IMG/VR virus record: IMGVR_UViG_3300020171_000030
Location: 1 to 60,523 of that record
DNA: 60,523 nt
Origin: a virus
Reading direction: 5' to 3' (one strand)
The notes below the pieces were generated by a model, which was not told where the DNA came from, made no database searches, and worked only from the letters and a program-made list of their open reading frames with translations. Within the stretch, counting starts at the first letter, position 1. Every line of letters begins with the position of its first letter. The position numbers and the translations under genes are program-made. Below are positions 644 to 60,523 of the stretch, piece after piece.

Positions 644-1609
644 ATGAGTTATTCAGATATATTTTCCTTAAATCCGGAATTTGGTCTAGAAGAAAGTATA
701 AATTTTCTGACCAACATTACAGAATCAGAAAGTGGTAAAGAATATCGGGATGCACTATGGGATGACGGCATAAGGGATTATAAACTTACCTGCCAGTTTT
801 TGACTCAGGCAGCGATGAACGAAATATGGCGTTTTTATATAGATAGGAAAGGTCCTTATGATTATTTTCTTATTAAAGTATTAACTGAATATGAATCCCT
901 TAGTGAAAATGCAGGTACTGCTGATAACAATGAAACTATATTTGAATTAGATTATTTTCCAGTTGATACAACAGCAAATCATTCCTGCACAGTTGGAGGT
1001 ATAGCAAATACTAATTATACATTAAGTAATAATTTTACTACTGAAAAATCATATATTACCTTTTCACCTGCCCCAGTTTCAGGAACTATATTAGTTAGTT
1101 ATGAATACTACATGAGAATGCGTTTTGCAGAAGATAAATTAAGCAGGAAGTTAGCGGCGTATCAATTATTGCATACCGGCATGATATTAAAAGAAGATCG
1201 TTGGTCTATTTATGTCCCGCCGAATACTACTTCCAGTTCTTCAAGTTCTTCAAGCAGTTTAAGCAGTTCCAGTTCTTCAAGTTCTTCAAGCAGTTTAAGC
1301 AGTTCCAGTTCTTCTAGTAGTTCAAGCAGTTCAAGTTCTTCAAGCAGTTCATCAAGTAGTTCAAGTTCTTCAAGCAGTTTCAGTTCATCAAGCAGTTCTT
1401 TTAGTTCTTCCAGTTCTTCAAGTTCTTCTAGTTGTTCTTTTAGTTCTTCTTCTAGTTCTAGTTCTAGTTCTAGTTCTAGTTTTTCAAGTAGTTCAAGCAG
1501 TTCTAGTTCTTCTAGCAGTTCATTCAGCTCAAGCAGCTCTAGTTCTTCTAGCAGTTCATTCAGCTCAAGCAGCTCTAGTTCTTCTAGTTCTTCTAGTTCT
1601 AGCAGTTAA
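644..1609 (+). CDS. DUF2460-type distal tail protein with C-terminal polyserine tract
   Basis: 321 aa. Residues 1-200 resemble the DUF2460 tail-tip family (a region near residue 65 reads as aromatic-rich IWRFYIDRKGPYDYF, matching the family's FF..R.G...F pattern). The gene has the position of gene transfer agent g12, just before BR0599, NlpC/P60 and the J-like hub. A good SD (cgaggag) lies before the ATG. From about residue 200 the protein is almost pure serine with occasional Leu, Phe and Cys to its end. Such a tail is not part of the family and matches tracts in four other virion proteins of this phage. A polyserine linker or modification target is inferred. Confidence 0.75.
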   Translation: MSYSDIFSLNPEFGLEESINFLTNITESESGKEYRDALWDDGIRDYKLTCQFLTQAAMNEIWRFYIDRKGPYDYFLIKVLTEYESLSENAGTADNNETIFELDYFPVDTTANHSCTVGGIANTNYTLSNNFTTEKSYITFSPAPVSGTILVSYEYYMRMRFAEDKLSRKLAAYQLLHTGMILKEDRWSIYVPPNTTSSSSSSSSSLSSSSSSSSSSSLSSSSSSSSSSSSSSSSSSSSSSSSSSSFSSSSSSFSSSSSSSSSSCSFSSSSSSSSSSSSSFSSSSSSSSSSSSSFSSSSSSSSSSSFSSSSSSSSSSSSSSS

Positions 1610-2879: not shown

Positions 2880-5800
2880 AAGATTAACAAAAATATTAAT
2901 ATTAATACCATTATTTATTTTATGCACTTATAAATTAGCGCATGCTGATCCTATAACTGCGATTATAACGACGATAATGGCTGTTGTTGCAACAACTATT
3001 ACAGGAACAGCACCGTTATGGATACCAATGGTGGCCCATATCATTGTATATAGCGCGATGATAGCCATGGTCGGCTTTTCTATTTATTCTTCGGTAAGAG
3101 CCGCCCAACAGGCAGATAAATTAAAATCCGCTGGAGGTTCAAGTTCTAAATATACAGCGCCGATTATAAATAATACTTTTTCTAATGAAGGCGTTGTCCC
3201 TATAGTGTATGGTGGGCCTATTCTTTTTGGTGGAAATTTAGTATGGCAGTCAGATCCGGGTACAACAGTCAAGAGATTTCTTTGCGTTTGTATTGGCGAA
3301 ATAACCAGTATTACTAATGTAAAGATAGATGACCAGTCGATAGGAGATCTCTCTGGATGCACCTATACTGCTTATCTAGGGACATCTACTCAATCAGTTG
3401 ATTCCCGCGGATCAGCAACCGTTAAGGGATTACGCGATGTCGCATATATAGCCGCTACAATAACTGCAGGAGATAAAGTAAGCAGCAACCCTACAATAAC
3501 TGCTGAAGTGGTCGGCCGTAAAATACAAACATGGAATTCTGCATCACAGAATTGGACTACTAATGCAATAACATCTTCAAAAAACCCTGCTGCAATAATA
3601 AGAGATTATATGTTATTAAGCAGGGTTTTGGGAGGGTGCGGTATCCCAGAATCATTTATTGACCCAGTTACTTTCGGAGAATTTTTTATGCAATGCGCTG
3701 CATTAATTGATAACGGAAATGGAGGTACGGAAGCAAGATATGAATTAGATATTGCATTAGATACCAAACATTCCGCATTAGATAATCTCGATAAATTACT
3801 TATTACTTGTAATGCTAAAATTATACATAGCGGTGCACTTTATAAAATAGCATTTGAAAAAGCAGGCGAAACTGCTGTAATGGCATTTACAGAAGATAAT
3901 ATCACTAAAGGAACTTTTGTTTATGGATACGGCAAAACGGATTCCATGCCGAATAGGGTAGGCGTTGAATGGATTTCCGCATTAGAATCCAAAAATCCTA
4001 AACGTGTTGCTTGGGCAGAAGATGAGTTGGATCAGGATATTAGAGGAGCTATAGAAGATAAGATTGAATGTTATGGGATAATCAGGCAATCGCAGGCTTC
4101 CAGATTAGCGAATAAATTTTTATATGAAGGGAAACTCGCGGATATATGGTGTGAATTTGAATGTAATATGTCAGCCATGCACTGCGAGCCGTTTGATGTT
4201 GTTTCAGTAACGCATTCCCGGCCAAACTGGACTGCCGCATTATTCAGGATTGTCGGAACAGAAGAAAAAGATTTTGGTAAAGCTAAATTTTCATGTCAAG
4301 CATATAATTCCTCTATTGTTGATGACAGACATGGTTCATCTTTTGACGATTGGGATTATGGGTCTCCATCTAACCCCTTTGCGTCTGTTACAGAGGTTAG
4401 CAATATAATATTAACAGAAGTAGGATGGTTGAATCCTGATGGAACATGGATATCGCATATAGATGTTTCATGGACTAAACCTATCAGCAAACTTGATCTT
4501 TTGGATTCTTATATTATTGAGTTAAAAAAGGGAACAGATAGTTATATAATCGTTGGTTCTGCACCGGCTTCTGCTACGGAATACCGGATTAATATAAACT
4601 TAGAGACTGATGAAATTTATTATATTCGTATTAAAACAAAATCAATAAATAGTATTATATCTAATGGAACAATTTCAGCAGTATTAAAACTTACTGGTAA
4701 AGAATCTCTACCTGACAATGTTTCCGGTTTCGCCTATACATTTACGAATGAACTTGTTTTCAAGTGGAATAAAAATGATGATTTAGATTTAGCGGGATAT
4801 GAAATCCGAACAGAAGATGCTAATTGGGGTATCCAAAGTGCAACTCTTATTTATCGGGGATTAAGCAATACATTTACTATCATTAAACCTGCATCAAGAA
4901 CTCCCGGTGTTTATTATATCAAAGCTTATGATAATTCAGGAAATTATTCTTTTAACGCACAATTTGTTTCACCTACTAACGCCGCGCCAATAGCGCCAAT
5001 TATTACAATGACACAATGGTTTGGTTTTGCTAAAATTCAATGGACTGATGTTGCTGATACTGATTTATTATATTATCAAGTGTATAAATCAGATACTAAT
5101 GCTTGGGCTGGTGAAGAAACATTGGAAGCGGTAGTATCTGGAACAGCGGTAACAGTTCAAGGCAAAGCGCCGGTTGATGTGATGGCCGATGTTGTTGACG
5201 CTACAAGCATTATTGACGCTGATATAATTGCTAAGGGAGTTAATTATTTTGTAGGAGATAGAATCGAACAGACTTCTGGAATTTATAACGGGCAGAAAAC
5301 TACGATTACAGCATTTGATACCGCTATAGGAAAAGTATCTGTAGCAAGTTGGCCATCAGGAACACCTTCAATAGGAGATAAATTTGTATTAAAAGATAGG
5401 GCATATTTTATGGTAAGAGGTGTAGATACTTATGGTGCCGGAGTATTTTCTTCTACAACAACAATAGATTTTACTCCATTATCAGAATCGGAAATAGGAG
5501 ATGCAATAATAAGTGCTAGAAAGCTTATTGCCGGAGAAGTTATTACTTTATCGGCGCAGATAAAAGATGCTATTATAACAAATGCTAAAATTGTATCTTT
5601 GACCGCCGATAAGATTATAACTGGTACATTATCTGCTACTGAAGAGATAGATATCGGAAATAATATGATAATAGACGGCGACGGTAATATAAGAGTCTAT
5701 GCCGATACCGTATATATACAAACCAATATTAATGACCATATAGACTTTAAAGAAAATGGCGGTGCAGAACTTACTGCTAACTTGACTCCTACCACATATT

Positions 5801-6425: not shown

Positions 6426-7121
6426 ATGAGTGAGTTTGGGCTATTAGTAAAAAATCAATATGGTAATATACATACTAATGTATTAGCAGAAGCCCCTACT
6501 ATAATTGCTTTTGGATATGGGAATATTGCCGCTAGCGGGAGTATTTATGGAAATATAGGAGCACCAGCAAAAAATGCCATTGGTTTTTATCACGCAGATT
6601 CTTATGCCTCTCCTGCTATGAAATGGTATGGAGATGGTTATGTAAGAATATATCAAAGATTTTGGAAAGTCAGTTCTAAAATATATTTTATAATAGGGCA
6701 ATATGGTCCTGGACAATTAGTTACCACGGATGCTTTTGGGATAAGGAATAATAATATCTTTCAAAATAAATCCATAACCTCTGATCTTCCTCATTTTGTA
6801 ATAGGAACAGCGGTAATACTCACTAAAACTTATGAGACGACAGAGGGACCTTTCGATGATTTTTTATGGGGTGATTCTGCTGCGTTCAATTATTTTTATA
6901 TTCCTTTTGTTGATATCAACCCAGCTGTATTCATGGATTCGATTGCCACGGTAGATGAAATAGAAAGAAGAATACAAGTGGCACACATATGGAGAAATAA
7001 CGCAACAGCTCTAGATTTAGGTTTATATGCCACTATTGATAAATATTGGACTTTGTTAGGGGGTACACAAGACACATTAATTACTCTCATAAAAGGAATA
7101 TCTGGTATCTATGGAGGATAA
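6426..7121 (+). CDS. Small tail-associated protein, second of a pair
   Basis: 231 aa with a MSEFGLLVKNQYGN start that parallels the preceding protein (MSEYGLLLNN), suggesting duplication of an N-terminal docking module. The remainder contains aromatic and Gly-rich beta segments. Function is unknown; a tail tip or fibre component is the simplest reading of the context. Confidence 0.6.
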   Translation: MSEFGLLVKNQYGNIHTNVLAEAPTIIAFGYGNIAASGSIYGNIGAPAKNAIGFYHADSYASPAMKWYGDGYVRIYQRFWKVSSKIYFIIGQYGPGQLVTTDAFGIRNNNIFQNKSITSDLPHFVIGTAVILTKTYETTEGPFDDFLWGDSAAFNYFYIPFVDINPAVFMDSIATVDEIERRIQVAHIWRNNATALDLGLYATIDKYWTLLGGTQDTLITLIKGISGIYGG

Positions 7122-7983: not shown

Positions 7984-8255
7984 ATCCTTTAATTTTAAGC
8001 GGGGTAAATATAATTTATCACAATATCCGCAGATTTGCGGGAGTGATATTGATAGCAGTAGTGCTTATTGGGGGGCCTTACTTACTTTATAGAAAAGGTT
8101 ATAATAAGGGTTATCAGGCTGGCTATTCCGCAGCAATAAAAGAAAGACCTACCTATGGGCAAGTAGGGACAGTAGTTAATGAAGCTCCAGATGGATATAA
8201 GATATTAGGGGTAAGAGTAAATATCTGGAAGTTTAGATTAGGATTAGGGATTTAA
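7980..8255 (+). CDS. Single-pass membrane protein of the putative lysis group
   Basis: 91 aa, starting in an ATGA overlap. One transmembrane helix (AGVILIAVVLIGGPYLLY) follows a short N-terminus. Then comes a Gly/Tyr/Lys-rich segment (RKGYNKGYQAGYSAA) and a short tail. It is the last plus-strand gene before the terminator. It could be an inner-membrane spanin or lysis accessory, but no coiled coil typical of spanins is visible. Confidence 0.5.
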   Translation: MNPLILSGVNIIYHNIRRFAGVILIAVVLIGGPYLLYRKGYNKGYQAGYSAAIKERPTYGQVGTVVNEAPDGYKILGVRVNIWKFRLGLGI

Positions 8256-8277
8256 ATCTCGAAACCTAGGATAAAAA

Positions 8278-8317
8278 ATATCGCAGAAAAATTATAACTT
8301 CTGCGGTATTTTTTTTT
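8278..8317 (+). terminator. Strong intrinsic terminator, probably bidirectional
   Basis: An 11-bp stem (ATATCGCAGAA with TTCTGCGGTAT, one G-T pair), a 10-base loop and then nine T. A run of A at 8273-8278 gives a U-tract in the other direction, so it can also stop the minus-strand operon ending at 8400. It marks the convergence of the late and early transcripts. Confidence 0.85.
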
Positions 8318-8399
8318 ATAAATCCTAAAATCAGATATGTAAAAATCTATTATATTGTTTTTTGCGTTTCTGTGGGTATGCTACTTGCCCCAGCCCTAA

Positions 8400-8660
8400 C
8401 TACCCTATTTTATTCAAGGAACGTAGATATGCTTGCTTGCCAGCGTTCTCCCTTGATGTAAGTCCTTGATATTTAAGAAGTTGACTATATTTTTCACCAA
8501 TCCTTTTTCGAGTAGGCTTATGGGCCTTACATTTTTCTTCATTTTTGAGCCCAAAACGTTCTTTTCCACCTATTGTTGAGGCTTCTGGATCTAATGGACA
8601 ATTGTTGCAAGAACACGCTTCAAAACTAGGACATTCGCGGTAAGGCATTCTATTTAACAT
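8400..8660 (-). CDS. Cys-rich small protein, putative zinc binding
   Basis: 86 aa. The first 30 residues contain five Cys (RECPSFEACSCNNCPLDPEA), then a Lys-rich helical C-terminus with HKPTRKRIGEKYSQL. It is the last gene of the minus-strand region and overlaps the preceding one by 11 bases. A metal-binding or redox role is likely; no known family recognised. Confidence 0.6.
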   Translation of the reverse strand: MLNRMPYRECPSFEACSCNNCPLDPEASTIGGKERFGLKNEEKCKAHKPTRKRIGEKYSQLLKYQGLTSRENAGKQAYLRSLNKIG

Positions 8661-10090: not shown

Positions 10091-10382
10091 TTTCTTCCTC
10101 TATACTTTTTATCTTCGCGTCAAATACATCTATAACTCGCTTCACTGTTTCGTTTTGAAGCGCCTTTTGATGCAGATAAATCGGCGCGAGATGTTTCTGT
10201 TCTTCGGCTGTTAATGATTTCCAAATTTCATCCATAGGTTTTTCAAACTTGAGTTCAAAGTTTTGCTTTATTTTAGCCCAGCGCTTTTCGTCTTGTTTCA
10301 GTGTTGCTTCGTTATTAATAATGTAACGAAGTGCCTTGAGAAATCGATCGTAGGATTGCTTGAAGTCTTGGATATTATTCAT
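10071..10382 (-). CDS. Hypothetical helical protein
   Basis: 103 aa, charged and mostly helical (KALRYIINNEATLKQDEKRW). It overlaps the radical SAM gene by 20 bases and is the first gene after a 350-base non-coding stretch, so it probably heads this sub-operon. No recognised domain. Confidence 0.55.
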   Translation of the reverse strand: MNNIQDFKQSYDRFLKALRYIINNEATLKQDEKRWAKIKQNFELKFEKPMDEIWKSLTAEEQKHLAPIYLHQKALQNETVKRVIDVFDAKIKSIEEENESSSN

Positions 10383-10400
10383 TTTTGTGTTTCTAAAATA

Positions 10401-10555
10401 GCAACGGTTTGGCTACTGTTTTTGGTATAGATTTTTTAGTGCTGAACCGTTGCTGTTTTTTTGAAATTCTTCATTTTAGGCAGTTTTTTGTAACGGTTTA
10501 TTTTTTCAATTTTCCATAACTCGTTGCAATTACTCAATGTTGTAAAAACCGTTAC
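10401..10555. repeat. Two nested inverted-repeat pairs with AACGGTT core in a 350-base gene-free stretch
   Basis: In the gap 10383-10731, GCAACGGTTT (10401) pairs with AACCGTTGC (10445-10453), and GTAACGGTTTA (10490-10500) pairs with AAACCGTTAC (10546-10555). The same GTAACGGTTTATTT occurs again at 22825-22838. They may be operators of a phage regulator or hairpins in the leader of the 10382-8400 operon. I found no convincing -35/-10 pair and no open reading frame of note in the gap. Confidence 0.55.
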
Positions 10556-11160: not shown

Positions 11161-13752
11161 TTAGTCCTCCAAGAGACCGTCTGGTGCATCTGCCGTAGTC
11201 GGGCTGATTGCTTTCCCGGACAAGGGGTCATAAAATAATTTAGTATCACATTTGAAATGTTCCCAAATATCCTCGATTTTAGGTAGGAAGCCTAGCGTAC
11301 TGCTCGACCATTCTAACCCTCTTTTCGATATCTTAAATGTGGAAGCCTTGCCTCTGCCGCCAACACTGCCTTTTTCTTCATATTCCAGTAGGTTGCCATG
11401 TACTAACACATATACCCATTTTTTTACTTTTTCTACCTTCCAGTCAACATATTCCGCGACATCCTTATACTTAAAGATAAACTCATGCGCTGGGTCTTCC
11501 TGTTCAAAATGAGATTTCATATTATTGATGGCCTTCCAAAGTTCTTCTGCTGAAGGCCCTATTTCATAGATGGTATAAGTTAATATCGACTCTGCAATGG
11601 TTTTGGCTACATAATAATCAGCTAGTGTAGAAATAAGGTGTATGGTGCCTTCCTTTGATTTTTCTTGTTTTCTATGAAATTGGTGCAGTAAGGTAACAAC
11701 TTCTATTAATACCCGAAAGCGTTCTCGGTCTCTTCTTATGCGTACCGGCTTATCCGGAAAGCTAGAAAATACCTCTTTGGCATAGGGAATAATTACTTTA
11801 TAATCAGGATTTAATAAACGCTGGATATTCTTCCATAAGTTCAATTCTTTCTCATCAATCTTGAAAGTTTCCCCCATTGCTTTACGCACTGTGATATCTC
11901 CGATTGCCTGGGTCAACTGTGGTGAGTCATCACTGAATACACTGAAGTTCCGCGTTTCGTTTTCATCGAACATATGCGATTTGGTAGTGGTGATAAGAAA
12001 ACCTACCGGACCTTTGACGCGTTTGGTTACAGTTTCCATGTCTCCGGTAGCTGGGTCTTTTATCGGCATCATCAAAATCAAGTCCCCTTCAGACTGAGCT
12101 GTTCTAATAGAGTAGTCAGCACTTTCTGAGCCTTGCAGTTCGTTGATATAGATAATTCTATGCTGCATCCCATCTTCAGGCAAATGGAAGAAAGCGTTTT
12201 GTGTAGCTCGCGTAATGAAATGGTAACCTTCTTCAGGGATAAGTCTTTGGACATTTGTGCAGGCAAAGGATTTACCACTTGACGCTTCTCCTTTCACTGT
12301 CATAGATAATGGTTCGCTGAGTATCCGTGATGTATAACAGAGGTATACCATTAGCCTTAATGTTTCTTCCCCCATAACTCCCATGCGGTTAGTAAGGTCG
12401 ATGATATGATAAAGAAGATTGGGAGTTGATTCAAGAAACTTAATCGCTTCATTTTTTTCTCCTTCGGTCATGATATAAAGTTGCTTCGGCGCAAGCAACT
12501 TATCATGTTCTTCTTTTTCTAGTTGTTTCTTGACTAAATCTTCTAGTTTAATTAGGTCGCTGTCTATTTCTTCATCCTTGGTTGCAGCAACAAAGCGTTT
12601 CCGGTTTGAGGCCATACTAAGGTTGATGATATCCTTATGAGCAATCTTCCCGGACTTAGATAATGTTAGAGATACTTTGAACTTTCCGGCTTTGGTAAAC
12701 TCAAAATTGGTCAACCGGTATTCATAATCTTTCTTTTTAAAAACCATCGCATCTGGATCTCTGAAAACCATAGTAATAATCCCAGCTTCAATTTGTTCCT
12801 TTCTGACTTGAGAACTGGTTAAAGGGCAAGTTTCTTTATCACAATAAGGTTGTATCAATGCATCGTCGCAGCCATAACTTTTATATCCGCCTTTAAATAC
12901 CGATTTAATAATTTGAGAAAGTTCTTTTTCAACTTGCTGTTTTGTTTTATCTGGCGGGAGTTCTTGTTTAGAATTCCAATTCTCTAATAAAGTTTCTATT
13001 TCATCACTTCCTAACCCACGTTCTTTAAAATGTATTGCAAGCCTGAAAGCAGCGTTATGTCTATGCCCTACATTAACTCCTTGTTTTATTTTTTCGATAC
13101 AAGGCAGTTCTTTGGAATAAACTTTATGTTCTTCAGATGTTTCAGTGATGATGATTTTCTTACGTGCTAATTTTCGCATAAACATCACTGCGGGGATAAT
13201 GCCTGAATCAGTGATTCTAATTTTATGGATATCTTTAACATCATCAATAATAATATTATTCTTATCATTGATGAACACTGTGCGTCCGTTCTTGACATCG
13301 CCGCCGAATAAAGGCAGGTTGATATAGTTCCCATACGGGGCGTTTTCGTTGATTTCATCCTGTTTAGGAAAAATCTCACAAATAATTCCTAATTCTTCTA
13401 AAATGCTTTCAAAAATGAGGCGCGGCTTTACCGCCTCGATTGGTTTATCGAAAAATAGCCAACCGTGTGTTCCTTTACTTTTACTGCGTTCTAACCAGAT
13501 TTTAAGATTAAGATTTTCGAGTCTTTGTTTTATAGTTAATGCTTTATCGAAATTATCTTCATCAAGATCGAAACAGATAAATTTAACCCATTGTTTATCA
13601 TAGATGGGATAAATACCGATTCGCTGTATCCCATCGAGATGGTCTTGATAAATTTTAGTCGTTAAAGTAGACTTCATACAAAAATTGTTCATCCCGAATG
13701 CATCTGCGCGCCCTGAAAATAATTTCATAAAAGCATTAAGATTTTGAGACAT
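11161..13752 (-). CDS. Primase-helicase with TOTE-type archaeo-eukaryotic primase domain
   Basis: 863 aa. Residues 10-165 match the TOTE-system AEP primase: LFSGRADAFG, HLDGIQRIGIYPI, catalytic FDLDED (Asp62, Asp64), KGTHGWLFF (His96), and a later FPKQDE and NYINLPLFGG. Residues 218-285 look like PriCT, followed by a Cys cluster (Cys295, 304, 309). The ATPase domain has Walker A GEASSGKS (488-495), and the putative Walker B reads RIIYINELQG with Asn where Asp is usual. A winged helix ends the protein. It should prime and unwind phage DNA. SD aaggagcc precedes the start. No polymerase gene is seen in the window. Confidence 0.85.
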   Translation of the reverse strand: MSQNLNAFMKLFSGRADAFGMNNFCMKSTLTTKIYQDHLDGIQRIGIYPIYDKQWVKFICFDLDEDNFDKALTIKQRLENLNLKIWLERSKSKGTHGWLFFDKPIEAVKPRLIFESILEELGIICEIFPKQDEINENAPYGNYINLPLFGGDVKNGRTVFINDKNNIIIDDVKDIHKIRITDSGIIPAVMFMRKLARKKIIITETSEEHKVYSKELPCIEKIKQGVNVGHRHNAAFRLAIHFKERGLGSDEIETLLENWNSKQELPPDKTKQQVEKELSQIIKSVFKGGYKSYGCDDALIQPYCDKETCPLTSSQVRKEQIEAGIITMVFRDPDAMVFKKKDYEYRLTNFEFTKAGKFKVSLTLSKSGKIAHKDIINLSMASNRKRFVAATKDEEIDSDLIKLEDLVKKQLEKEEHDKLLAPKQLYIMTEGEKNEAIKFLESTPNLLYHIIDLTNRMGVMGEETLRLMVYLCYTSRILSEPLSMTVKGEASSGKSFACTNVQRLIPEEGYHFITRATQNAFFHLPEDGMQHRIIYINELQGSESADYSIRTAQSEGDLILMMPIKDPATGDMETVTKRVKGPVGFLITTTKSHMFDENETRNFSVFSDDSPQLTQAIGDITVRKAMGETFKIDEKELNLWKNIQRLLNPDYKVIIPYAKEVFSSFPDKPVRIRRDRERFRVLIEVVTLLHQFHRKQEKSKEGTIHLISTLADYYVAKTIAESILTYTIYEIGPSAEELWKAINNMKSHFEQEDPAHEFIFKYKDVAEYVDWKVEKVKKWVYVLVHGNLLEYEEKGSVGGRGKASTFKISKRGLEWSSSTLGFLPKIEDIWEHFKCDTKLFYDPLSGKAISPTTADAPDGLLED

Positions 13753-16519: not shown

Positions 16520-16732
16520 TTATTTTCTTTTCAACATATAAAACCTATCCTTCCAATCCTGGTCTTCAAGTTTTCTGCGACAAGAACAGCCGTGGTCTGA
16601 GCCACAATATCCACAAACTTTAATCTTCTTAAGTTTATTCTTTTCCATATTATAATCCTCATATACCTGTGGCAGTTCTAATGCTAAACTTATACTATCT
16701 ATTTTATCTAAATCGTTCATTTTATTTATCAT
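16520..16732 (-). CDS. Small zinc-ribbon protein
   Basis: About 70 aa from the ATG at 16732 (MINKMNDLDKID). The frame stays open to 16834, but that part overlaps the RNA fold at 16746-16895 and is unlikely to be coding. The C-terminal half has CGYCGSDHGCSCRRK, a zinc site, and ends DRFYMLKRK like the protein at 15483. No good SD; the start is uncertain (16750, 16732 or 16720). Confidence 0.5.
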   Translation of the reverse strand: MINKMNDLDKIDSISLALELPQVYEDYNMEKNKLKKIKVCGYCGSDHGCSCRRKLEDQDWKDRFYMLKRK

Positions 16733-16745
16733 ATCTGTTATTATC

Positions 16746-16895
16746 CCCATAAAGTAACGAAGAAATAGAAACTGGAAAAGGGTTTCTTCGAGGCAATAAA
16801 GGAGGTGCGGTATGTCTTTGCAGACGATATGCACCGCTAACGAGCATGGGATCTCGTTCCGTTTCTGCCTGAAGGGTCAATTCTTACTTTATGGG
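16746..16895 (-). ncRNA. Candidate structured RNA: four-way fold closed by a 12-bp stem
   Basis: CCCATAAAGTAA (16746-16757) pairs perfectly with TTACTTTATGGG (16884-16895). Inside are three hairpins: 16758-16790 (CGAAGAAA with TTTCTTCG, stacked directly on the closing stem), 16807-16837 (GCGGT with ACCGC, plus an inner GTCT-GCAA-AGAC tetraloop on the minus strand) and 16839-16858 (AACGAG with CTCGTT). It lies between two minus-strand genes. It could be a leader element, a riboswitch-like regulator or a processed phage RNA. No known family recognised. Confidence 0.55.
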
Positions 16896-16915
16896 AGATG
16901 TCAACATTTTAAATC

Positions 16916-17650
16916 TTACTCGGTTTTATCTTCTTCTGTCAACTCTACATCGATGTCTTTCTTCCTGCGGTAAAGCATATCAAAAAAATTCTTGGCTATC
17001 ATATACTCTTCATCTTCACAACGCCTGTTGAAATTGATTACCGGCACGGCGTAAGTTCCTTTATCCCCTTTAACGATTTCTGATTTTAGTGTATACACTC
17101 TAGCGAACATATCTTCACCGGAGAACCGAGCCATTGAAAGAAGTTCTTTCGCTGTCTTTATTGCGGTACGCATTAGAGAAAGAGAAATCGGGAACTGGTT
17201 GAGTTTACCGACAAGCATTACTGGAAAGTTGTATACTATGCTGAATGTAGGCGGCTGATCCCCATCCCAATCTGAACCTGGGACTTCTTCGACCGGCCTA
17301 TCTAAGTATTCAGAGAACTCATCAATCGCCATAGTTACGGTTACGTTGTCTCGCGACATCATTACTAACCCTCTTTCAATATCGAATTGAGCCCGAGTCT
17401 TAAACATGAACAACGGGATAAAATCAATCTCGTCTCCGTAAACTTCTTTAGTCAAGGAATTACCGAGTTGCCCCATTCTTGCCTTGCCGTCAATAACAAC
17501 TTCTGAAAGACCTTGCAGTATAGATAACCTGGCAATTTTGATATCCCCTTCCTCTATTTCGTCAAAACCTGCAGGTAGATTTTTTTCTCCGGAGATACGC
17601 GGTACGAGAGCGCCTTCCTTTTTTATTTCTAACTCTTTATCTTTATCCAT
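16916..17650 (-). CDS. Conserved phage replication-region protein
   Basis: 244 aa. The segment LPAGFDEIEEGDIKIARLSI, then LQGLSEVV, NSLTKEVYGDEIDFIPLFMF and a central DQPPTFSIVYNFPV stretch match a widespread phage protein usually found near single-strand annealing or replication genes. I know the pattern but not a proven function; ssDNA binding is a common suggestion. It follows the 17664 gene after a 13-base gap with SD ggaggg. Confidence 0.6.
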   Translation of the reverse strand: MDKDKELEIKKEGALVPRISGEKNLPAGFDEIEEGDIKIARLSILQGLSEVVIDGKARMGQLGNSLTKEVYGDEIDFIPLFMFKTRAQFDIERGLVMMSRDNVTVTMAIDEFSEYLDRPVEEVPGSDWDGDQPPTFSIVYNFPVMLVGKLNQFPISLSLMRTAIKTAKELLSMARFSGEDMFARVYTLKSEIVKGDKGTYAVPVINFNRRCEDEEYMIAKNFFDMLYRRKKDIDVELTEEDKTE

Positions 17651-27897: not shown

Positions 27898-27918
27898 ATA
27901 ATTTCCTTTTTTATAAAG

Positions 27919-27999
27919 TGCCGGAGCTCTGAATCGAACAGAGTTACTTAACACTCATACGATTGAGTGAGTGCCTTTAACCAATTAGGCTACTCCGGC
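27919..27999 (-). tRNA. tRNA or tRNA-like gene, tentatively Thr (anticodon CGT)
   Basis: Acceptor stem GCCGGAG with CTCCGGC and discriminator A; D arm GCCT/AGGC; T arm CTCTG-TTCGATT-CAGAG, all perfect. The anticodon arm is odd: CACTC/GAGTG closes an 8-base loop AATCGTAT, three bases (not one) link it to the D arm, and the variable region has 8 bases. Taking T33 and A37 as canonical gives anticodon CGT. At 81 bases it is long for a class I tRNA. No CCA is encoded. The isotype is uncertain. Confidence 0.65.
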
Positions 28000-45583: not shown

Positions 45584-48232
45584 ATGGCAATAAACTTATC
45601 TGGTCTTAATGTAATCAAATTTGATATTTATGCTTCAAGAACAGGAAGTAATATCAAAATCGGCATCCACGACTCTGGCGGAACGACTACGGAAATTACT
45701 CCCAATATCACTTCTGCTAATACATGGCAAGCAGTTTCTTGGGATATTTCTGCTGTTAGTGATGCTAATAAAGATGCCATTGATAGTATTATTGTAACGA
45801 TAGTCAACGCAGACGCAGCGAATACCTTTTATATTGACAATATGCGTGCTGCGATAGCAGATTTGACAGACCAAAATTGGGTCTATTTTGATATTTATTC
45901 GAGTAGGACAGGTTCAAATGTTAAAGTGGGACTTCACGACGCCGATGGCATAACTACGGAAACAACGCCGAATGTCGTTTCAGCAAATAATTGGCAAGGA
46001 GTTAATTGGGACTTCTCTGGCGTTTCTAATGCCAACAAAGATGAAATAGATCAGGTTATAGTTACAGTAGTCAATGCAGATGCGGCCAATACTTTTTATA
46101 TTGATAATATGTTTGGGACAACTACTAGTTCTAGTTCTTCTAGTAGTTCTAGCTCTTCTAGTAGTTCAAAAAGTTCGAGTAGTTCAAGTTCTTCCAGTAG
46201 TTCATTAAGTTCTAGCAGTTCTAGTTCTTCTAGTTCATCAAGTAGTTCATTCAGTTCGAGCAGTTCTAGTTCTTCTAGTTCTTCAAGTAGCTTTAGTAGT
46301 TCAAGCAGTTCCAGTTCCTCAAGTAGTTCCAATAGTTCTAGCTCTTCAAGTTCATCAAGCAGTTCATTCAGCTCAAGCAGTTCTAGTTCTTCGAGTAGTT
46401 CTTTCAGCTCAAGCAGTTCCAGTTCCTCTAGTTCTTCGAGCAGTTCATTCAGCTCAAGCTCTTCCAGTTCTTCAAGCAGTTCAAGCAGTTCATTCAGCTC
46501 AAGCTCTTCCAGTTCTTCAAGCAGTTCAAGCAGTTCATTCAGCTCAAGCTCTTCCAGTTCTTCAAGCAGTTCAAGCAGTTCAAGCAGTTCATTCAGCTCA
46601 AGCTCTTCCAGTTCTTCAAGCAGTTCAAGCAGTTCAGAAAGCTCGAGCAGTTCAAGTTCTTCAAGTTCTTCAAGCAGTTCAGAAAGCTCAAGCAGTTCCA
46701 GTTCTTCAAGTTCTTCAAGCAGTTCAGAAAGCTCGAGCAGTTCAAGTTCTTCAAGCAGTTCAGAAAGTTCGAGCAGTTCAAGTTCTTCAAGTTCTTCAAG
46801 TTCTTCATTCAGCTCGAGCAGTTCAAGTTCTTCAAGTTCTTCATTCAGCTCGAGCAGTTCTAGTTCTTCAAGTTCTTCAAGCAGTTCAGAAAGCTCAAGC
46901 AGTTCCAGTTCTTCAAGTTCTTCAAGCAGTTCAGAAAGCTCGAGCAGTTCAAGTTCTTCAAGTTCTTCATTCAGCTCAAGCAGTTCCAGTTCTTCAAGTT
47001 CTTCAAGCAGTTCAGAAAGCTCGAGCAGTTCAAGTTCTTCAAGCAGTTCTTTCAGCTCGAGCAGTTCTAGTTCTTCCAGTTCTTCAAGCAGTTCTTTCAG
47101 CTCGAGCAGTTCTAGTTCTTCTAGTTCATCAAGCAGTTCATTAAGCTCAAGCAGTTCTAGTTCTTCAAGCAGTTCATTCAGTTCAAGCAGTTCCAGTTCC
47201 TCTAGTTCTTCGAGCAGTTCGTTCAGTTCAAGCAGTTCTAGTTCTTCAAGCAGTTCATTTAGCTCAAGCAGTTCCAGTTCCTCTAGTTCTTCGAGCAGTT
47301 CGTTCAGTTCAAGCAGTTCCAGTTCCTCTAGTTCTTCAAGCAGTTCATTTAGCTCAAGCAGTTCTAGTTCTTCCAGTTCTTCAAGCAGTTCATTCAGCTC
47401 AAGCAGTTCTAGTTCTTCCATCTCTTCAAGCAGTTCATTCAGCTCAAGCAGTTCTAGTTCTTCAAGTTCTTCTAGCAGTTCATTCAGCTCAAGCAGTTCT
47501 AGTTCTTCCAGTTCTTCAAGCAGTTCATTCAGCTCAAGCAGTTCTAGTTCTTCCAGTTCATCAAGCAGTTCATTCAGTTCAAGCAGTTCCAGTTCTTCTA
47601 GTTCTTCTAGTTCTTCTAGCAGTTCATTCAGTTCAAGCTCTTCCAGTTCTTCTAGTTCTTCTAGCAGTTCATTCAGTTCAAGCTCTTCCAGTTCTTCTAG
47701 TTCTTCTAGTTCTTCTAGCAGTTCATTCAGTTCAAGCTCTTCCAGTTCTTCTAGTTCTTCAAGCAGTTCATTCAGTTCAAGCAGTTCCAGTTCTTCAAGT
47801 AGCTCAAGCAGTTCATTCAGCTCAAGCAGTTCCAGTTCTTCAAGCAGTTCAAGCAGTTCATTCAGCTCGAGCAGTTCCAGTTCTTCAAGTAGCTCAAGCA
47901 GTTCATTCAGCTCAAGCAGTTCCAGTTCTTCAAGTAGCTCAAGCAGTTCATTCAGCTCAAGCAGTTCCAGTTCTTCAAGCAGTTCAAGCAGTTCATTCAG
48001 TTCAAGCAGTTCTAGCTCTTCCAGTTCTTCAAGTAGCTCTAGTTCTTCTAGTTCTTCAAGCAGTTCTAGTTCTTCAAGCAGTTCTAGTTCTTCAAGCAGT
48101 TCTAGTTCAGCTTCATCATTACCTCATAAAGTTGAATTTAAGGATAAAACATATAATTATAAATTCAATAATGATACTAGTGATTATAAGTTTAAAGATG
48201 ATACGAGTGATTATAAATTCAAAGAACAGTAA
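45584..48232 (+). CDS. Surface protein with carbohydrate-binding-like repeats and giant polyserine tract
   Basis: 882 aa. Residues 1-90 and 90-178 are two related beta-sandwich repeats (FDIYASRTGSNIKIGIHDSG; FDIYSSRTGSNVKVGLHDAD), the first lacking its beginning, which is found at the end of the preceding frame. Then about 660 residues are nearly all Ser with a Phe, Glu, Leu or other residue every 12-15 positions, encoded by mixed AGC/AGT/TCT/TCA codons in 36-45-base repeats. The C-terminus has three copies of a DTSDYKFK-like motif. There is no SD before the ATG. Probably a long spike or linker on the virion. Confidence 0.7.
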   Translation: MAINLSGLNVIKFDIYASRTGSNIKIGIHDSGGTTTEITPNITSANTWQAVSWDISAVSDANKDAIDSIIVTIVNADAANTFYIDNMRAAIADLTDQNWVYFDIYSSRTGSNVKVGLHDADGITTETTPNVVSANNWQGVNWDFSGVSNANKDEIDQVIVTVVNADAANTFYIDNMFGTTTSSSSSSSSSSSSSSKSSSSSSSSSSSLSSSSSSSSSSSSSSFSSSSSSSSSSSSSFSSSSSSSSSSSSNSSSSSSSSSSSFSSSSSSSSSSSFSSSSSSSSSSSSSSFSSSSSSSSSSSSSSFSSSSSSSSSSSSSSFSSSSSSSSSSSSSSSSSFSSSSSSSSSSSSSSESSSSSSSSSSSSSSESSSSSSSSSSSSSSESSSSSSSSSSSESSSSSSSSSSSSSSFSSSSSSSSSSSFSSSSSSSSSSSSSSESSSSSSSSSSSSSSESSSSSSSSSSSFSSSSSSSSSSSSSSESSSSSSSSSSSFSSSSSSSSSSSSSSFSSSSSSSSSSSSSSLSSSSSSSSSSSFSSSSSSSSSSSSSSFSSSSSSSSSSSFSSSSSSSSSSSSSSFSSSSSSSSSSSSSSFSSSSSSSSSSSSSSFSSSSSSSSISSSSSFSSSSSSSSSSSSSSFSSSSSSSSSSSSSSFSSSSSSSSSSSSSSFSSSSSSSSSSSSSSSSSFSSSSSSSSSSSSSSFSSSSSSSSSSSSSSSSSFSSSSSSSSSSSSSSFSSSSSSSSSSSSSSFSSSSSSSSSSSSSSFSSSSSSSSSSSSSSFSSSSSSSSSSSSSSFSSSSSSSSSSSSSSFSSSSSSSSSSSSSSSSSSSSSSSSSSSSSSSSSSSSSASSLPHKVEFKDKTYNYKFNNDTSDYKFKDDTSDYKFKEQ

Positions 48233-49136: not shown

Positions 49137-50694
49137 AAGAATAAATTGGCAAAAAGAAATAGAAAGCCGGTCTCAGCAAGACGCGAGAAAGTGGCAGATT
49201 AAAGAATACCGGCGCTGTGCTGAGGATAAAATATATTGGTTCAATAATTATGTTTGGACGATGGATACTCGTAGAACGCCATCAATTATACCGTTTGTAT
49301 TATGGCCTAAACAGATAGAGTTAGTTAAAGAATTAGATAAATACCAAGATTTGTTTATTGATAAACCTCACGATCTCGGCATTTCTTGGACAATTATGGG
49401 GTGGGAGTTACATCAGGATTTATATACAAAAGGTTTTACTGCATTGAATATTTCAAGAAAAGAGTCAGAAGTGCAAGATTCCGGTAATACTTTTCACGCA
49501 TTACACGGACGGTTATTATTTATGTATTCCAGACTTCCACCATTTTTAAAGCCGCGGATCCATAACCCGTTTTTAATATTCGCGGTGCCTTCAATGAATT
49601 CAGTGATTAAAGGAGAGTCATCTAACCCCAATGCCGGAAGAGATACGCAATATAAATTTATTTTTATTGATGAAGCGGCGTGTATAGAATGTCTTGATGA
49701 AATGTGGAAAGGAGTTCGCGCTGCTACAAATACTGTTTGTCTTAATTCAACTCCTCCAAAAGAAAGTGTGAATAATAAATTTGCTGAAATAAAAGATATG
49801 CCTAATTCCGGTTTTACTAAAATGAGGTTTCATTGGAAAGATAATCCGCAACATGATGAAAACTGGTTTAATAAAAAAACTGCTTCAATGACAGAAGAAG
49901 AAATAGCGCAGGAGGTTTTAGTAGGGTATGATAAGGCAAAAATTAATCGTTCCTATCCTGAGTATGATGATGGGATACATCTGTTAGGGCATAAGGTATA
50001 TCTTAACCCGAAATCAAAATTGTATGCCTTTCAGGACTTTGGGCTTGAAGGCGAAGGATGGATCTTTGCACAAAAAGATTTTGAAGATAGATTATTCTGT
50101 ATATATTACAAATTATTTTTTAATATGCTCACTCTAGAGTTATATCATGAGTTTATCAAATGTTTAGATGCTTTAGGTTATACAGGGCTAATAAGTGATA
50201 TTGTATTTATAGGAGATAAGTCTGGGAATAAAAGAAGCAGATTAACTAAAACAAGTGTGATAGAAGATTGGAAAAAAGTATCTAATGGACAAATTGATAT
50301 CCATACCCGCGAACTTTCTAATGATGAGAAGATGAAATGCGTTAAGGCGTGCCTTAAAAAATATATTAACGGCAGGCCGCAGTTTAATATTTCAGATGAG
50401 CCGACCTGCCTAGAATTGGCAAAGTGCTTAAAAAATGTTACTTTGAATAAAACTGGGCAAGACCATATTGACAATAAATATACTCACGCAGTTAATATGA
50501 TAGAATATGGCATAAATTATTTATTTCCTAAAACTAAAGCTGCGGGAATTGTGGTAGGGATAGATCCGGGGCAGGAAATAAGGGATGAAAACGGAAAAGT
50601 TATTAGAACTGTTGAACCTATTATGACTAGAGGTGCTTCTGTGGCTAGCGTTATAGGTGAAAGAAGAATTATTAGAGGAGGTTTATTAAGATGA
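49120..50694 (+). CDS. terL: Terminase large subunit
   Basis: 524 aa, GTG start inside the small-subunit gene. The ATPase has the variant P-loop IDKPHDLGISWTIMGW (80-95), Walker B KFIFIDEAAC, a coupling motif LNSTP, and an RNase H-like nuclease with FQDFGLEGEG, FIGDKSGNKRSR and KYTHAVNMIEYG. It pumps DNA into the prohead and cuts concatemers. The P-loop variant without GKS is known for many phage terminases. Confidence 0.9.
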   Translation: MENNVERINWQKEIESRSQQDARKWQIKEYRRCAEDKIYWFNNYVWTMDTRRTPSIIPFVLWPKQIELVKELDKYQDLFIDKPHDLGISWTIMGWELHQDLYTKGFTALNISRKESEVQDSGNTFHALHGRLLFMYSRLPPFLKPRIHNPFLIFAVPSMNSVIKGESSNPNAGRDTQYKFIFIDEAACIECLDEMWKGVRAATNTVCLNSTPPKESVNNKFAEIKDMPNSGFTKMRFHWKDNPQHDENWFNKKTASMTEEEIAQEVLVGYDKAKINRSYPEYDDGIHLLGHKVYLNPKSKLYAFQDFGLEGEGWIFAQKDFEDRLFCIYYKLFFNMLTLELYHEFIKCLDALGYTGLISDIVFIGDKSGNKRSRLTKTSVIEDWKKVSNGQIDIHTRELSNDEKMKCVKACLKKYINGRPQFNISDEPTCLELAKCLKNVTLNKTGQDHIDNKYTHAVNMIEYGINYLFPKTKAAGIVVGIDPGQEIRDENGKVIRTVEPIMTRGASVASVIGERRIIRGGLLR

Positions 50695-52121
50695 AAAAAA
50701 CTAAAGCAATACAAGAACCATCTGAGGTTGTCGTCAATTTTAACGAACGTGGAAAACGGCAGGCTGAAATTCAGCGCAGGTTAGCTGAGGCATATCCGAT
50801 GATAGGCGGATCAACTGAAGATTCGTTATGGCGTTCACTTACTACCAATCAGGATAGAGATCTTAATCTGCTTACGCAGAGAAGGATGCAGGATATCGCA
50901 TTTTACCTATACGATAGCAATCCTATGGCTAAAAGAATAATTGATATACTTAAAGATTTCATAGTAGGAGACGGGTTTAGATATTCTGCAGTTGATCCAG
51001 AAGTAAAAGAAGTCATTGATGAATTTTGGAATGACCCGGATAATAACTTAGATATGGAAATCGAAACTGATGTTGCTGAGTTGCATATTTTCGGCGAACT
51101 TTGTTTGCCAGTCTGGGTTAATTCGGCTAACGGCGCTGTAAAATTAGGATATATAGACCCTAAGACAATATTAAAAATCAAAAAAGATTCTAGTAATACT
51201 AAAATAAATAAAATTTTAATCTGGAGAAAACCCAGCGGCTCAGTTGAAAGAGAATTAAATATTATCAATGTTGATAGAAATACAAGATCTAAAACTTATG
51301 GAAAATTAGTAGGAGGTTGTTTCTATTTTACAATTAACAAAGTAAGTTCAGCGACGAGAGGAAGGTCAGAATTGCTCTGTTTGGCCGACTGGCTCGACGG
51401 ATATGACCAATTCCTATTCGCAAGGTTAGAAAGAGCATTTTTGTTAAACAATTTTATCTGGGATATCCAATGTGAAGGGATGAATAAAGGAGAACTAGAA
51501 GAGTTTGTTAAAACTTTAGCCACGCCTCGTCCCGGTTCGATAAGAGCGCATAATGAAAAGATTACTTGGAAGGCTGAAACGCCGAAATTAGAATCTGCTG
51601 ACGCTTCAGAAGAGGCAAGGTTATTTAAACAGCAGATATTAGGCGGTGCTGGATTTCCGGAATTGTGGTTTGGAGAAACTTCAAGCACAACGAGAGCAAC
51701 AGCTTTAGAGACCAGCCTTCCTGTATTAAAAAGGTTAAGATCTCGTCAAAGAGTAATAAAATATCAATTACAATTTATTATCAATTTTGTTATAGACCAA
51801 GCAATAATAGCTAAGAGGCTAAAAGAAGATGTTGATAGGCGATTTAAAATTATACCGTTTCCGATTGTTTCTCGCGATAATAAAGGTACTGCAGAAGCTA
51901 TGGGAGGATTAGTTCAAGGATTAGTTGTAGCTAAACAGAATAATTGGATAACTAATAAAAAAGCGAAGACAGTCCTTAATGCTGTATTAACGCAATTCGG
52001 AGTGGATATGGAAAGTAATACTGATGAGGAAGATGATAAGGAAGATGGTGAAAGCAGTAGTTCAACGTCATCAAACTCTTCCAGTAGTTCAGAAAGTTTA
52101 AATGGGATGGAGGTAATATAA
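50691..52121 (+). CDS. Portal protein with short polyserine tail
   Basis: 476 aa. Features of SPP1/HK97-type portals: LYDSNPMAKRIIDILKDFIV, DVAELHIFGELCLPVWVN, RGRSELLCLADWLDGYDQFL, GGAGFPELWFGETSSTTRAT. The end is GESSSSTSSNSSSSSES, a small version of the serine tracts seen elsewhere. It forms the DNA entry pore, with the tail inside or outside the head. ATGA-type overlap with terL. Confidence 0.85.
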   Translation: MKKTKAIQEPSEVVVNFNERGKRQAEIQRRLAEAYPMIGGSTEDSLWRSLTTNQDRDLNLLTQRRMQDIAFYLYDSNPMAKRIIDILKDFIVGDGFRYSAVDPEVKEVIDEFWNDPDNNLDMEIETDVAELHIFGELCLPVWVNSANGAVKLGYIDPKTILKIKKDSSNTKINKILIWRKPSGSVERELNIINVDRNTRSKTYGKLVGGCFYFTINKVSSATRGRSELLCLADWLDGYDQFLFARLERAFLLNNFIWDIQCEGMNKGELEEFVKTLATPRPGSIRAHNEKITWKAETPKLESADASEEARLFKQQILGGAGFPELWFGETSSTTRATALETSLPVLKRLRSRQRVIKYQLQFIINFVIDQAIIAKRLKEDVDRRFKIIPFPIVSRDNKGTAEAMGGLVQGLVVAKQNNWITNKKAKTVLNAVLTQFGVDMESNTDEEDDKEDGESSSSTSSNSSSSSESLNGMEVI

Positions 52122-57557: not shown

Positions 57558-58736
57558 ATGCCAAAACCTACCAGATATAAATATAGCGTTGCCAATAAAA
57601 GAAGGGCATCGTTAAGTAAATCAATCAATTATTCTCTTACAGAGAATGATATATTACGAAGTGGATATTTATTCGTTACTCTTACCGCAGCCTGCACTTT
57701 AACCCTTCCTGTTGCAAGCACTAATTTAAGAGGCGTAAGTATTTATGTAACTACATCTGACCAGGGTAATGCCTATGTTGCAGCTGGTTTTGGTGGTGGT
57801 GGTGGTAGTTACGATACAGCGCAGATAGGAAGATATGAGACTGCAGAGTTCTGGTGTGATGGCAGTTATTGGTATGCTTTAGATGTAACTGTTACCGGAA
57901 CTGGATCTAGTTCATCTAGTTCTTCCAGTTCTTCAAGCAGTTCAAGCAGTTCTTCCAGTTCAAGCTCAAGCAGTTCATTGAGTTCGAGTAGTTCATCAAG
58001 TTCGAGCAGTTCATTGAGTTCAAGCAGTTCATCTTCAAGCAGTTCATCTTCAAGCAGTTCATCTTCAAGCAGTTCAGAAAGTTCTTCTAGTTCGAGCTCA
58101 AGCAGTTCAAGCAGTTCATCAAGCAGTTCAGAAAGTTCTTCTAGTTCATCTTCAAGCAGTTCAAGCAGCTCAGAAAGTTCAAGCAGCTCAAGCAGCTCAA
58201 GCAGCTCATTGAGTTCAAGTTCTTCCAGTTCTTCAAGCAGTTCATTGAGTTCAAGTTCTTCAAGTAGTTCATCTAGCAGTTCTATAACAACTGGTTGGCT
58301 TGGGATAGATAACACTTGGTTATCTTCTGACTGTGGAGATGATGGCGGTTCTACAACTATTGAGAATGGCTTAGCTGGGACGAATGTTTGGAAACATACT
58401 GCTAATGAGACACATCAGTTCATTCTTGATTTAAAGAGTATACTTAATGTGCAGCAAGTTCGAGGCCGTTCAGGCGGTGATTTAAGCTGTGACCCGATAA
58501 ATGTTAATATTTATGTCAGCGAAGATGGAATTACTTGGGGGACAGCAGTAGCCGCTAATATCGCAACTTGGCAAGATGTTACCACTTGGCAAGAAGTCGC
58601 TTGTACAGCTAAGAATGGCAGATATGTCAAAGTAGAGATCACTACTACTGAAAGCGCAGTTAAAACGCTTGAGTTCGGCGGACCTGCAGGTGCGTTCTTT
58701 AAGATCTTCGATGTTTACGCCGTAAATGCAGTTTAG
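57558..58736 (+). CDS. Decoration-type protein, copy 2, with polyserine linker and F5/8C-like domain
   Basis: 392 aa. Residues 1-112 are a paralogue of the previous protein (YKYSVANKRRASLSKSINYS, FGGGGGSYDTAQIGRYETAE). About 130 residues of Ser with Leu and Glu follow. The C-terminal 150 residues (WLGIDNTWLSSDCGDDGGST, NVYVSEDGITWG-like core, ARNGRYVKVE-like end seen as NGRYVKVEIT) resemble discoidin/F5-8C domains that bind sugars. A flexible head fibre that docks on glycans is a good model. Confidence 0.7.
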   Translation: MPKPTRYKYSVANKRRASLSKSINYSLTENDILRSGYLFVTLTAACTLTLPVASTNLRGVSIYVTTSDQGNAYVAAGFGGGGGSYDTAQIGRYETAEFWCDGSYWYALDVTVTGTGSSSSSSSSSSSSSSSSSSSSSSSSLSSSSSSSSSSSLSSSSSSSSSSSSSSSSSSSSESSSSSSSSSSSSSSSSSESSSSSSSSSSSSSESSSSSSSSSSSLSSSSSSSSSSSLSSSSSSSSSSSSITTGWLGIDNTWLSSDCGDDGGSTTIENGLAGTNVWKHTANETHQFILDLKSILNVQQVRGRSGGDLSCDPINVNIYVSEDGITWGTAVAANIATWQDVTTWQEVACTAKNGRYVKVEITTTESAVKTLEFGGPAGAFFKIFDVYAVNAV

Positions 58737-60061: not shown

Positions 60062-60195
60062 TATACCCCAGAACAAAGATTTAAACGAGAAGGCGGAGAT
60101 AGAAACGACCCTTATATATAATATATATATAAGAAATATGTAATATCTTATATATTTATAATATATATATCCTTCCTATCTCTCCTAAAAATGTA
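60062..60195. other. AT-rich gap with alternating TA palindromes
   Basis: Tracts of TATATA at 60113-60131 and 60150-60171 pair with each other, and GGAGATAG upstream nearly matches CTATCTC downstream, so the whole gap can form one long stem. It may be an RNA processing site; no gene or promoter is clear. Confidence 0.4.
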
Positions 60196-60523
60196 ATGTC
60201 ATTAAGTCTAATCCGCGCTCAAATCAAAACTAAATTAGAAGCTATCTCTGGTGTAGAGAAAGTTTACGATTTTAAACGATTTTGCAACGCTTGGGCTACC
60301 TATAAGGATTTATTTATAAAGGATTCAAAGGTAAACACTTGGGAGATTGAAAGAAAGTCTTTCTCGCGGACTGGTAGAGGCGGTTCAGGTAATGTGGAAG
60401 ATACAACTCATGAATTCATTATTCGCGGGTTTTACTCTTTTTATGATATTCTGGCGACAGAAAAAACATTTCAAGACTTAGTGGAAACAATCTGCGCTGA
60501 TTTTATAGATGACCCTACACTTG
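60196..60523 (+). CDS. Head-tail or tail completion protein (partial, runs off the window)
   Basis: 109 codons without stop to the right edge. Starts MSLSLIRAQIKTKLEAISGV, then EKVYDFKRFCNAWATYKDLF and WEIERKSFSRTGRGG, ending FQDLVETICADFIDDPTL. Length and pattern fit phage neck or tail-terminator proteins. No SD is obvious, so the start is uncertain. Confidence 0.6.
   Translation, partial: MSLSLIRAQIKTKLEAISGVEKVYDFKRFCNAWATYKDLFIKDSKVNTWEIERKSFSRTGRGGSGNVEDTTHEFIIRGFYSFYDILATEKTFQDLVETICADFIDDPTL

What the first reader, a model, noticed from the sequence alone, without database searches (positions are those of the whole stretch)
16746..16895. 150-nt multibranched RNA fold
A perfect 12-bp closing stem encloses three hairpins, one stacked directly on the stem and one with a GCAA tetraloop on the minus (coding) strand. 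It occupies the leader of a small zinc protein gene between two operon segments. Chance formation of all four stems is unlikely. I recognise no known RNA family.
Basis: partly seen in the sequence, partly recalled or inferred. Interest (0 to 1): 0.7.

Follow-up and report, generated by a model that had tools for sequence, protein, structure and literature searches.

The report
Small structured RNA in phage operon
A bacterial virus carries a roughly 150-letter folded RNA between two genes, and a related virus keeps the same shape with different letters, so the fold is real and is used for something, but what it does is not yet known.

Summary
On the minus (coding) strand, 16745-16896 folds at -46.2 kcal/mol (z -5.1). 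Conservation is the stronger evidence. A second phage contig (L005, IMGVR_UViG_3300028298_000007) has a homologous element at the same place, after the same gene (Pam3 gp34-like). A covariance model built from the window sequence alone finds it at E = 2e-22. Of 46 base pairs, 15 are changed on both sides and still pair. 97.8% of cells pair, against 46-54% when the partner is slid. Paired positions are only 58% identical but unpaired ones are 81%. Folding L005 by itself gives the same helices.

In L005 the next gene is an acyl-carrier-like protein and a tRNA lies just upstream. In a third relative (L002) that slot holds only a tRNA. No Rfam family matches.

Best reading: a new, narrowly distributed phage RNA family in a tRNA slot of the replication operon, probably a stand-alone RNA like T4 RNAC/RNAD or GOLLD/ROOL. 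A gene-independent cis element is the main rival. Only two members are known. Expression and function are untested.

The parts
16745..16896 (-). whole structured RNA element (152 nt)
   Evidence: fold z -5.1; homologue L005:6815-6962 found by the window-only covariance model at E 2e-22; 15 doubly compensated pairs
16884..16896 (-). P1 closing stem, 5' strand UCCCAUAAAGUAA
   Evidence: 13/13 pairs kept in L005, 6 of them changed on both sides
16745..16757 (-). P1 closing stem, 3' strand; overlaps AUG 16748-16750, a possible start of the zinc-protein gene
   Evidence: sequence
16871..16883 (-). J1/2, single-stranded GAAUUnACCCUUC, 12 of 13 identical in L005
16859..16870 (-). P2 5' strand AGGCAGAAACGG
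   Evidence: predicted in both sequences independently; mostly invariant, so no covariation
16791..16802 (-). P2 3' strand
16798..16805 (-). CCUCCUUU, invariant and identical to the anti-Shine-Dalgarno core of 16S rRNA; predicted largely paired (P4/P2)
16839..16858 (-). P3 hairpin
   Evidence: one double change, shorter in L005
16804..16835 (-). P4 hairpin: basal 5 bp, symmetric 5x5 internal loop, distal 4 bp, GCAA loop at 16818-16821
   Evidence: basal helix 1 double change, distal helix 3 of 4 pairs doubly changed
16758..16790 (-). P5 hairpin abutting P1; loop UUUUCCAGUUUCUA (16766-16779) identical in L005
   Evidence: 4 double changes in the stem, 14/14 loop bases identical
16916..17650 (-). 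upstream gene, Pam3 gp34-like protein; anchor of synteny
   Evidence: PF23977 E 8.5e-21
16520..16750 (-). downstream gene, small Cys-rich (possibly zinc-binding) protein; start codon uncertain (16750, 16732 or 16720)
   Evidence: ORF list; no Pfam match
11161..13752 (-). primase-like gene, next conserved gene; in L002 and L005 it follows the slot directly or after one gene

Best explanation
It is a genuine conserved structured RNA of about 150 nt, transcribed on the minus strand as part of the phage's replication-module operon. Shown computationally: the shared secondary structure P1/P2/P3/P4/P5, kept by compensatory change; the fixed slot after the gp34-like gene; a neighbouring tRNA in one relative; a different downstream gene in each phage. 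Inferred: it is released from the polycistronic transcript as a separate, stable small RNA, the way phage tRNAs are. P1, with P5 stacked on it, would close and protect the ends. The conserved unpaired sequences (GAAUUnACCCUUC and the P5 loop UUUUCCAGUUUCUA) would be the surfaces that bind a host or phage partner in trans. The partner is unknown.
For: Homologue at the same locus. Model from the window alone finds it with 88.8 bits, E 2e-22. 15 of 46 pairs changed on both sides, 97.8% of cells paired, 0 of 500 shuffles as good on any measure. RNAfold on L005 alone gives the same helices. Consensus energy z -12 against column shuffles; sense strand better than antisense (-53.9 vs -47.6), and four G-U pairs exist only on the sense strand. 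Unpaired positions 81% identical, paired 58%. Downstream gene differs: Cys-rich protein versus acyl carrier protein. tRNA immediately upstream in L005, and only a tRNA in that slot in L002. RNAs of unknown function near phage tRNAs are a known kind: GOLLD, ROOL (PMC12286853). T4 RNAC and RNAD are phage RNAs of unknown function (PMC9697503).
Against: Only two members. The window phage has no tRNA beside the element. No own promoter or terminator is conserved: a sigma-70-like match just upstream in the window (-35 at 16942, 10/12) is absent from L005 and close to chance. No expression data. P1 overlaps a possible start codon of the next gene in the window, which could mean cis action.
Confidence: 0.5

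Rival explanations
1. A cis-acting intercistronic element that acts on whatever gene lies downstream: processive antitermination, an mRNA processing or stability element, or translational control by P1 covering the ribosome-binding site.
For: It lies between co-directional genes and just before a start codon in both phages. In the window P1 contains AUG 16748-16750 and the GGGG stretch just before the other candidate starts. It sits at the upstream edge of the variable gene block before the primase gene.
Against: The downstream gene is different, and in L005 a good ribosome-binding site (AAAGGAG) lies free outside the fold. No alternative terminator or anti-terminator stem was found in L005. 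L002 does without it in the same operon.
Confidence: 0.32
2. A ligand-sensing aptamer or a self-cleaving ribozyme of an undescribed class.
For: Multibranched core with invariant junction and loop sequences; no Rfam class.
Against: Downstream genes share no pathway. No expression platform is visible. None of Rfam's ribozyme or riboswitch models reaches its threshold.
Confidence: 0.08
3. The fold acts as single-stranded or cruciform DNA, for example as a replication or recombination site in the replication module.
For: Located between replication genes. The antisense strand also folds well.
Against: Four G-U pairs fit only the RNA-sense strand, and antisense folding is weaker. No repeats or related copies elsewhere in the genome.
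Confidence: 0.05
4. Chance fold in a spacer, or a decayed mobile element without function.
For: Perfect 12-bp inverted repeats of this kind are expected 1-2 times per window.
Against: 15 compensatory pairs and the unpaired/paired identity contrast.
Confidence: 0.03

Closest known systems
T4 RNAC and RNAD
   Same: Small phage RNAs of unknown function (PMC9697503); from general knowledge they lie in the T4 tRNA cluster and are of similar size.
   Different: No sequence link was tested beyond Rfam; different phage group; here there is at most one tRNA, and expression is unknown.
GOLLD and ROOL RNAs
   Same: Structured RNAs of unknown function encoded by phages and prophages, often near tRNAs (PMC12286853).
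   Different: GOLLD members often exceed 800 nt; this one is ~150 nt and does not match their Rfam models.
manA and wcaG motif RNAs of cyanophages
   Same: Candidate structured RNAs in phage genomes (PMC2864571).
   Different: Those sit upstream of genes of recognisable functional classes and are thought to regulate them; here the downstream genes have nothing in common, and Rfam finds no match.
Retron ncRNA (msr-msd)
   Same: End-to-end closing stem around several hairpins.
   Different: No reverse transcriptase (PF00078) in any of the four phage records.

Membership tests
Any Rfam 15 family (including GOLLD, ROOL, HEARO, wcaG, manA, tmRNA, RNase P) | score at or above the family's gathering threshold | tested here: not met
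   No match in the window at gathering threshold; at E up to 10 only chance hits to unrelated families far below their thresholds
Conserved structured RNA (generic) | compensatory base changes that keep helices in a homologue | tested here: met
   15 doubly changed pairs, 97.8% of cells paired, slid controls 46-54%
Retron | reverse transcriptase encoded beside the ncRNA | tested here: not met
   No PF00078 match in G000 or the relatives' records; controls rang
Gene-specific leader (riboswitch or autoregulatory leader of the zinc-protein gene) | same kind of downstream gene in relatives | tested here: not met
   Acyl-carrier protein gene downstream in L005
T4 RNAC/RNAD-like stand-alone phage RNA | location in or beside a tRNA gene or cluster | tested here: inconclusive
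   tRNA 10 nt upstream in L005; tRNA alone in the slot in L002; no tRNA beside it in the window
T4 RNAC/RNAD-like stand-alone phage RNA | accumulates as a discrete stable RNA | not testable with these tools
   no transcript data for this phage

The most novel reading that the evidence does not exclude
A phage RNA that handles ribosomes or messages through an anti-Shine-Dalgarno mimic. The invariant CCUCCUUU equals the 16S rRNA 3'-end core, and its P2 partner GAAACGG could instead pair with the invariant P5-loop CCAGUUUC, which would free CCUCCUUU to act as a switchable SD trap. The alternative pairing is predicted as the best loop target in both sequences but is not better than chance (130/2000 and 470/2000 shuffled loops as good).
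Probability: 0.04. Interest if true: 0.9.

Novelty: new variant of a known kind. Interest (0 to 1): 0.5.

Why it matters
Small stable RNAs beside phage tRNAs have been known since T4 and still have no function. A compact 150-nt example with a clear five-helix architecture and sharply conserved unpaired patches is easier to test (probing, pull-down, structure) than the large GOLLD or ROOL RNAs. It also shows that a reader of raw sequence can pick out an RNA family missing from Rfam.

Tried and rejected
DNA similarity searches in phages and plasmids gave only short chance matches. Four DNA-pattern scans of IMG/VR returned L005 (as L008) as the only true member; the other hits lack the fold and R1 does not score them. 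The genome contigs pattern scan gave four hits, all judged chance, one of them inside what reads as a metA-like coding gene. Model R2 in 1573 sampled genomes of four phyla, and unfiltered in more distant gp34- or primase-bearing phages, found nothing. Host remains unknown. L013 (GAAACGG...CCTCCTTTCGCCTCGGAG in an apparently non-coding stretch of another phage) looked similar by eye, but R1 does not score it, so it is not counted as a member. Protein-coding explanation: stops or indels break every frame between the two sequences. Pseudoknot P2/P5 loop: not significant. A full-density fold scan timed out and was rerun coarser.

Full report
OBSERVATION. The 150 nt at 16746-16895 fold on the minus strand at -46.2 kcal/mol, z -5.09, with none of 200 dinucleotide shuffles as good; the plus strand reaches z -3.54. 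In a scan of 1612 windows of 150 nt on both strands the element ranks 4th. The perfect 12-bp closing repeat is real but by itself ordinary: the window has two such repeats, and about 1.5 are expected in simulated sequence.

HOMOLOGUE. The upstream gene (16916-17650, Pam3 gp34-like, PF23977) was used to find relatives in IMG/VR. In L005 (IMGVR_UViG_3300028298_000007) the same gene is followed by a tRNA (6727-6804), then by a stretch at 6815-6962 that is clearly homologous to the element, then by an acyl-carrier-protein gene (PF00550) and the primase gene. In L002 the slot between the gp34-like gene and the primase gene holds only a tRNA-Met. In the window it holds the RNA, a Cys-rich small protein, a DNA methyltransferase (phrog_799) and further small genes, then the primase gene.

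STRUCTURE TEST. A covariance model built from the window sequence alone with the structure P1 (13 bp), P2, P3, P4 (two segments) and P5 (8 bp) finds L005 at 88.8 bits, E 2e-22. It finds nothing else in the full records of the window and four other viruses. In the structural alignment 15 of 46 pairs are changed on both sides and still pair: 6 in P1, 4 in P5, 4 in P4, 1 in P3. 97.8% of cells pair; sliding the partner drops this to 46-54%, and none of 500 shuffles reaches any of the five measures. That alignment was fitted to the window structure, but RNAfold on L005 alone gives the same helices. RNAalifold recovers them unaided with z -12 against column shuffles. Overall identity (72%) equals that of the flanking genes (71-73%), yet paired columns are 58% identical and unpaired columns 81%. 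That is the signature of selection on structure plus conserved unpaired contacts. The sense strand is favoured: antisense consensus -47.6 against -53.9, and four G-U pairs would be A-C on the other strand.

ANATOMY. P1 closes the RNA, and P5 abuts its 3' strand. J1/2 (GAAUUnACCCUUC) and the P5 loop (UUUUCCAGUUUCUA) are nearly invariant. P2 carries P3 and P4 on a three-way junction. P4 has a symmetric 5x5 internal loop and, in the window, a GCAA loop. P2 is almost invariant, so covariation neither supports nor opposes it. GAAACGG in P2 could pair with CCUCCUUU (P2) or with the P5 loop; the second is not significant.

WHAT IT IS. No Rfam family matches. No reverse transcriptase is present, so it is not a retron RNA. 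The downstream gene changes, so it is not a leader tied to one gene. Its slot is one in which relatives have a tRNA. The most economical reading is a stand-alone phage RNA co-transcribed with the replication genes, comparable in kind to T4 RNAC/RNAD (PMC9697503) and to GOLLD/ROOL near tRNAs (PMC12286853), but a separate family. A gene-independent cis element is nearly as likely. Transcription, processing and partner are not shown.

LIMITS. Two members only, from related phages. Four IMG/VR DNA-pattern scans, one genome-contig scan and 1573 sampled genomes gave no third. The host is unknown. The genome sampling was not guided by host, so its emptiness says little.

Noticed in passing
window 27918-27999 (-); L005 6727-6804 (+): tRNA-like genes whose anticodon loops look enlarged (about 10 and 9 nt); ARAGORN reads a four-base anticodon (aatc) for the first. 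Possible frameshift-decoding tRNAs or odd tRNA mimics.
   Followed up: no
window 8251-8400 (+), 10351-10500 (+), 60076-60225 (-): Three other 150-nt windows fold even further below their shuffles than the finding (z about -6 to -7); at least two are long hairpins followed by T runs, probably terminators.
   Followed up: partly
window 644-1609, 45584-48232, 50691-52121, 57558-58736: Several structural-region proteins contain very long poly-serine tracts (SSSSSSFSSSS...), in one case several hundred residues.
   Followed up: no
L005 6985-7227: A phage-borne acyl-carrier-protein gene (PF00550) inside the replication operon.
   Followed up: partly
window 16913-16942 (-): Sigma-70-like promoter match (TTGACA-18-TAAGAT, 10/12) whose start point would fall about 10 nt before the RNA; not seen in L005.
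   Followed up: partly
L013 about 2905-3000: Apparently non-coding stretch in another phage with GAAACGG...CCTCCTTTCGCCTCGGAG, resembling the element's P2 strands by eye; not scored by the model.
   Followed up: partly
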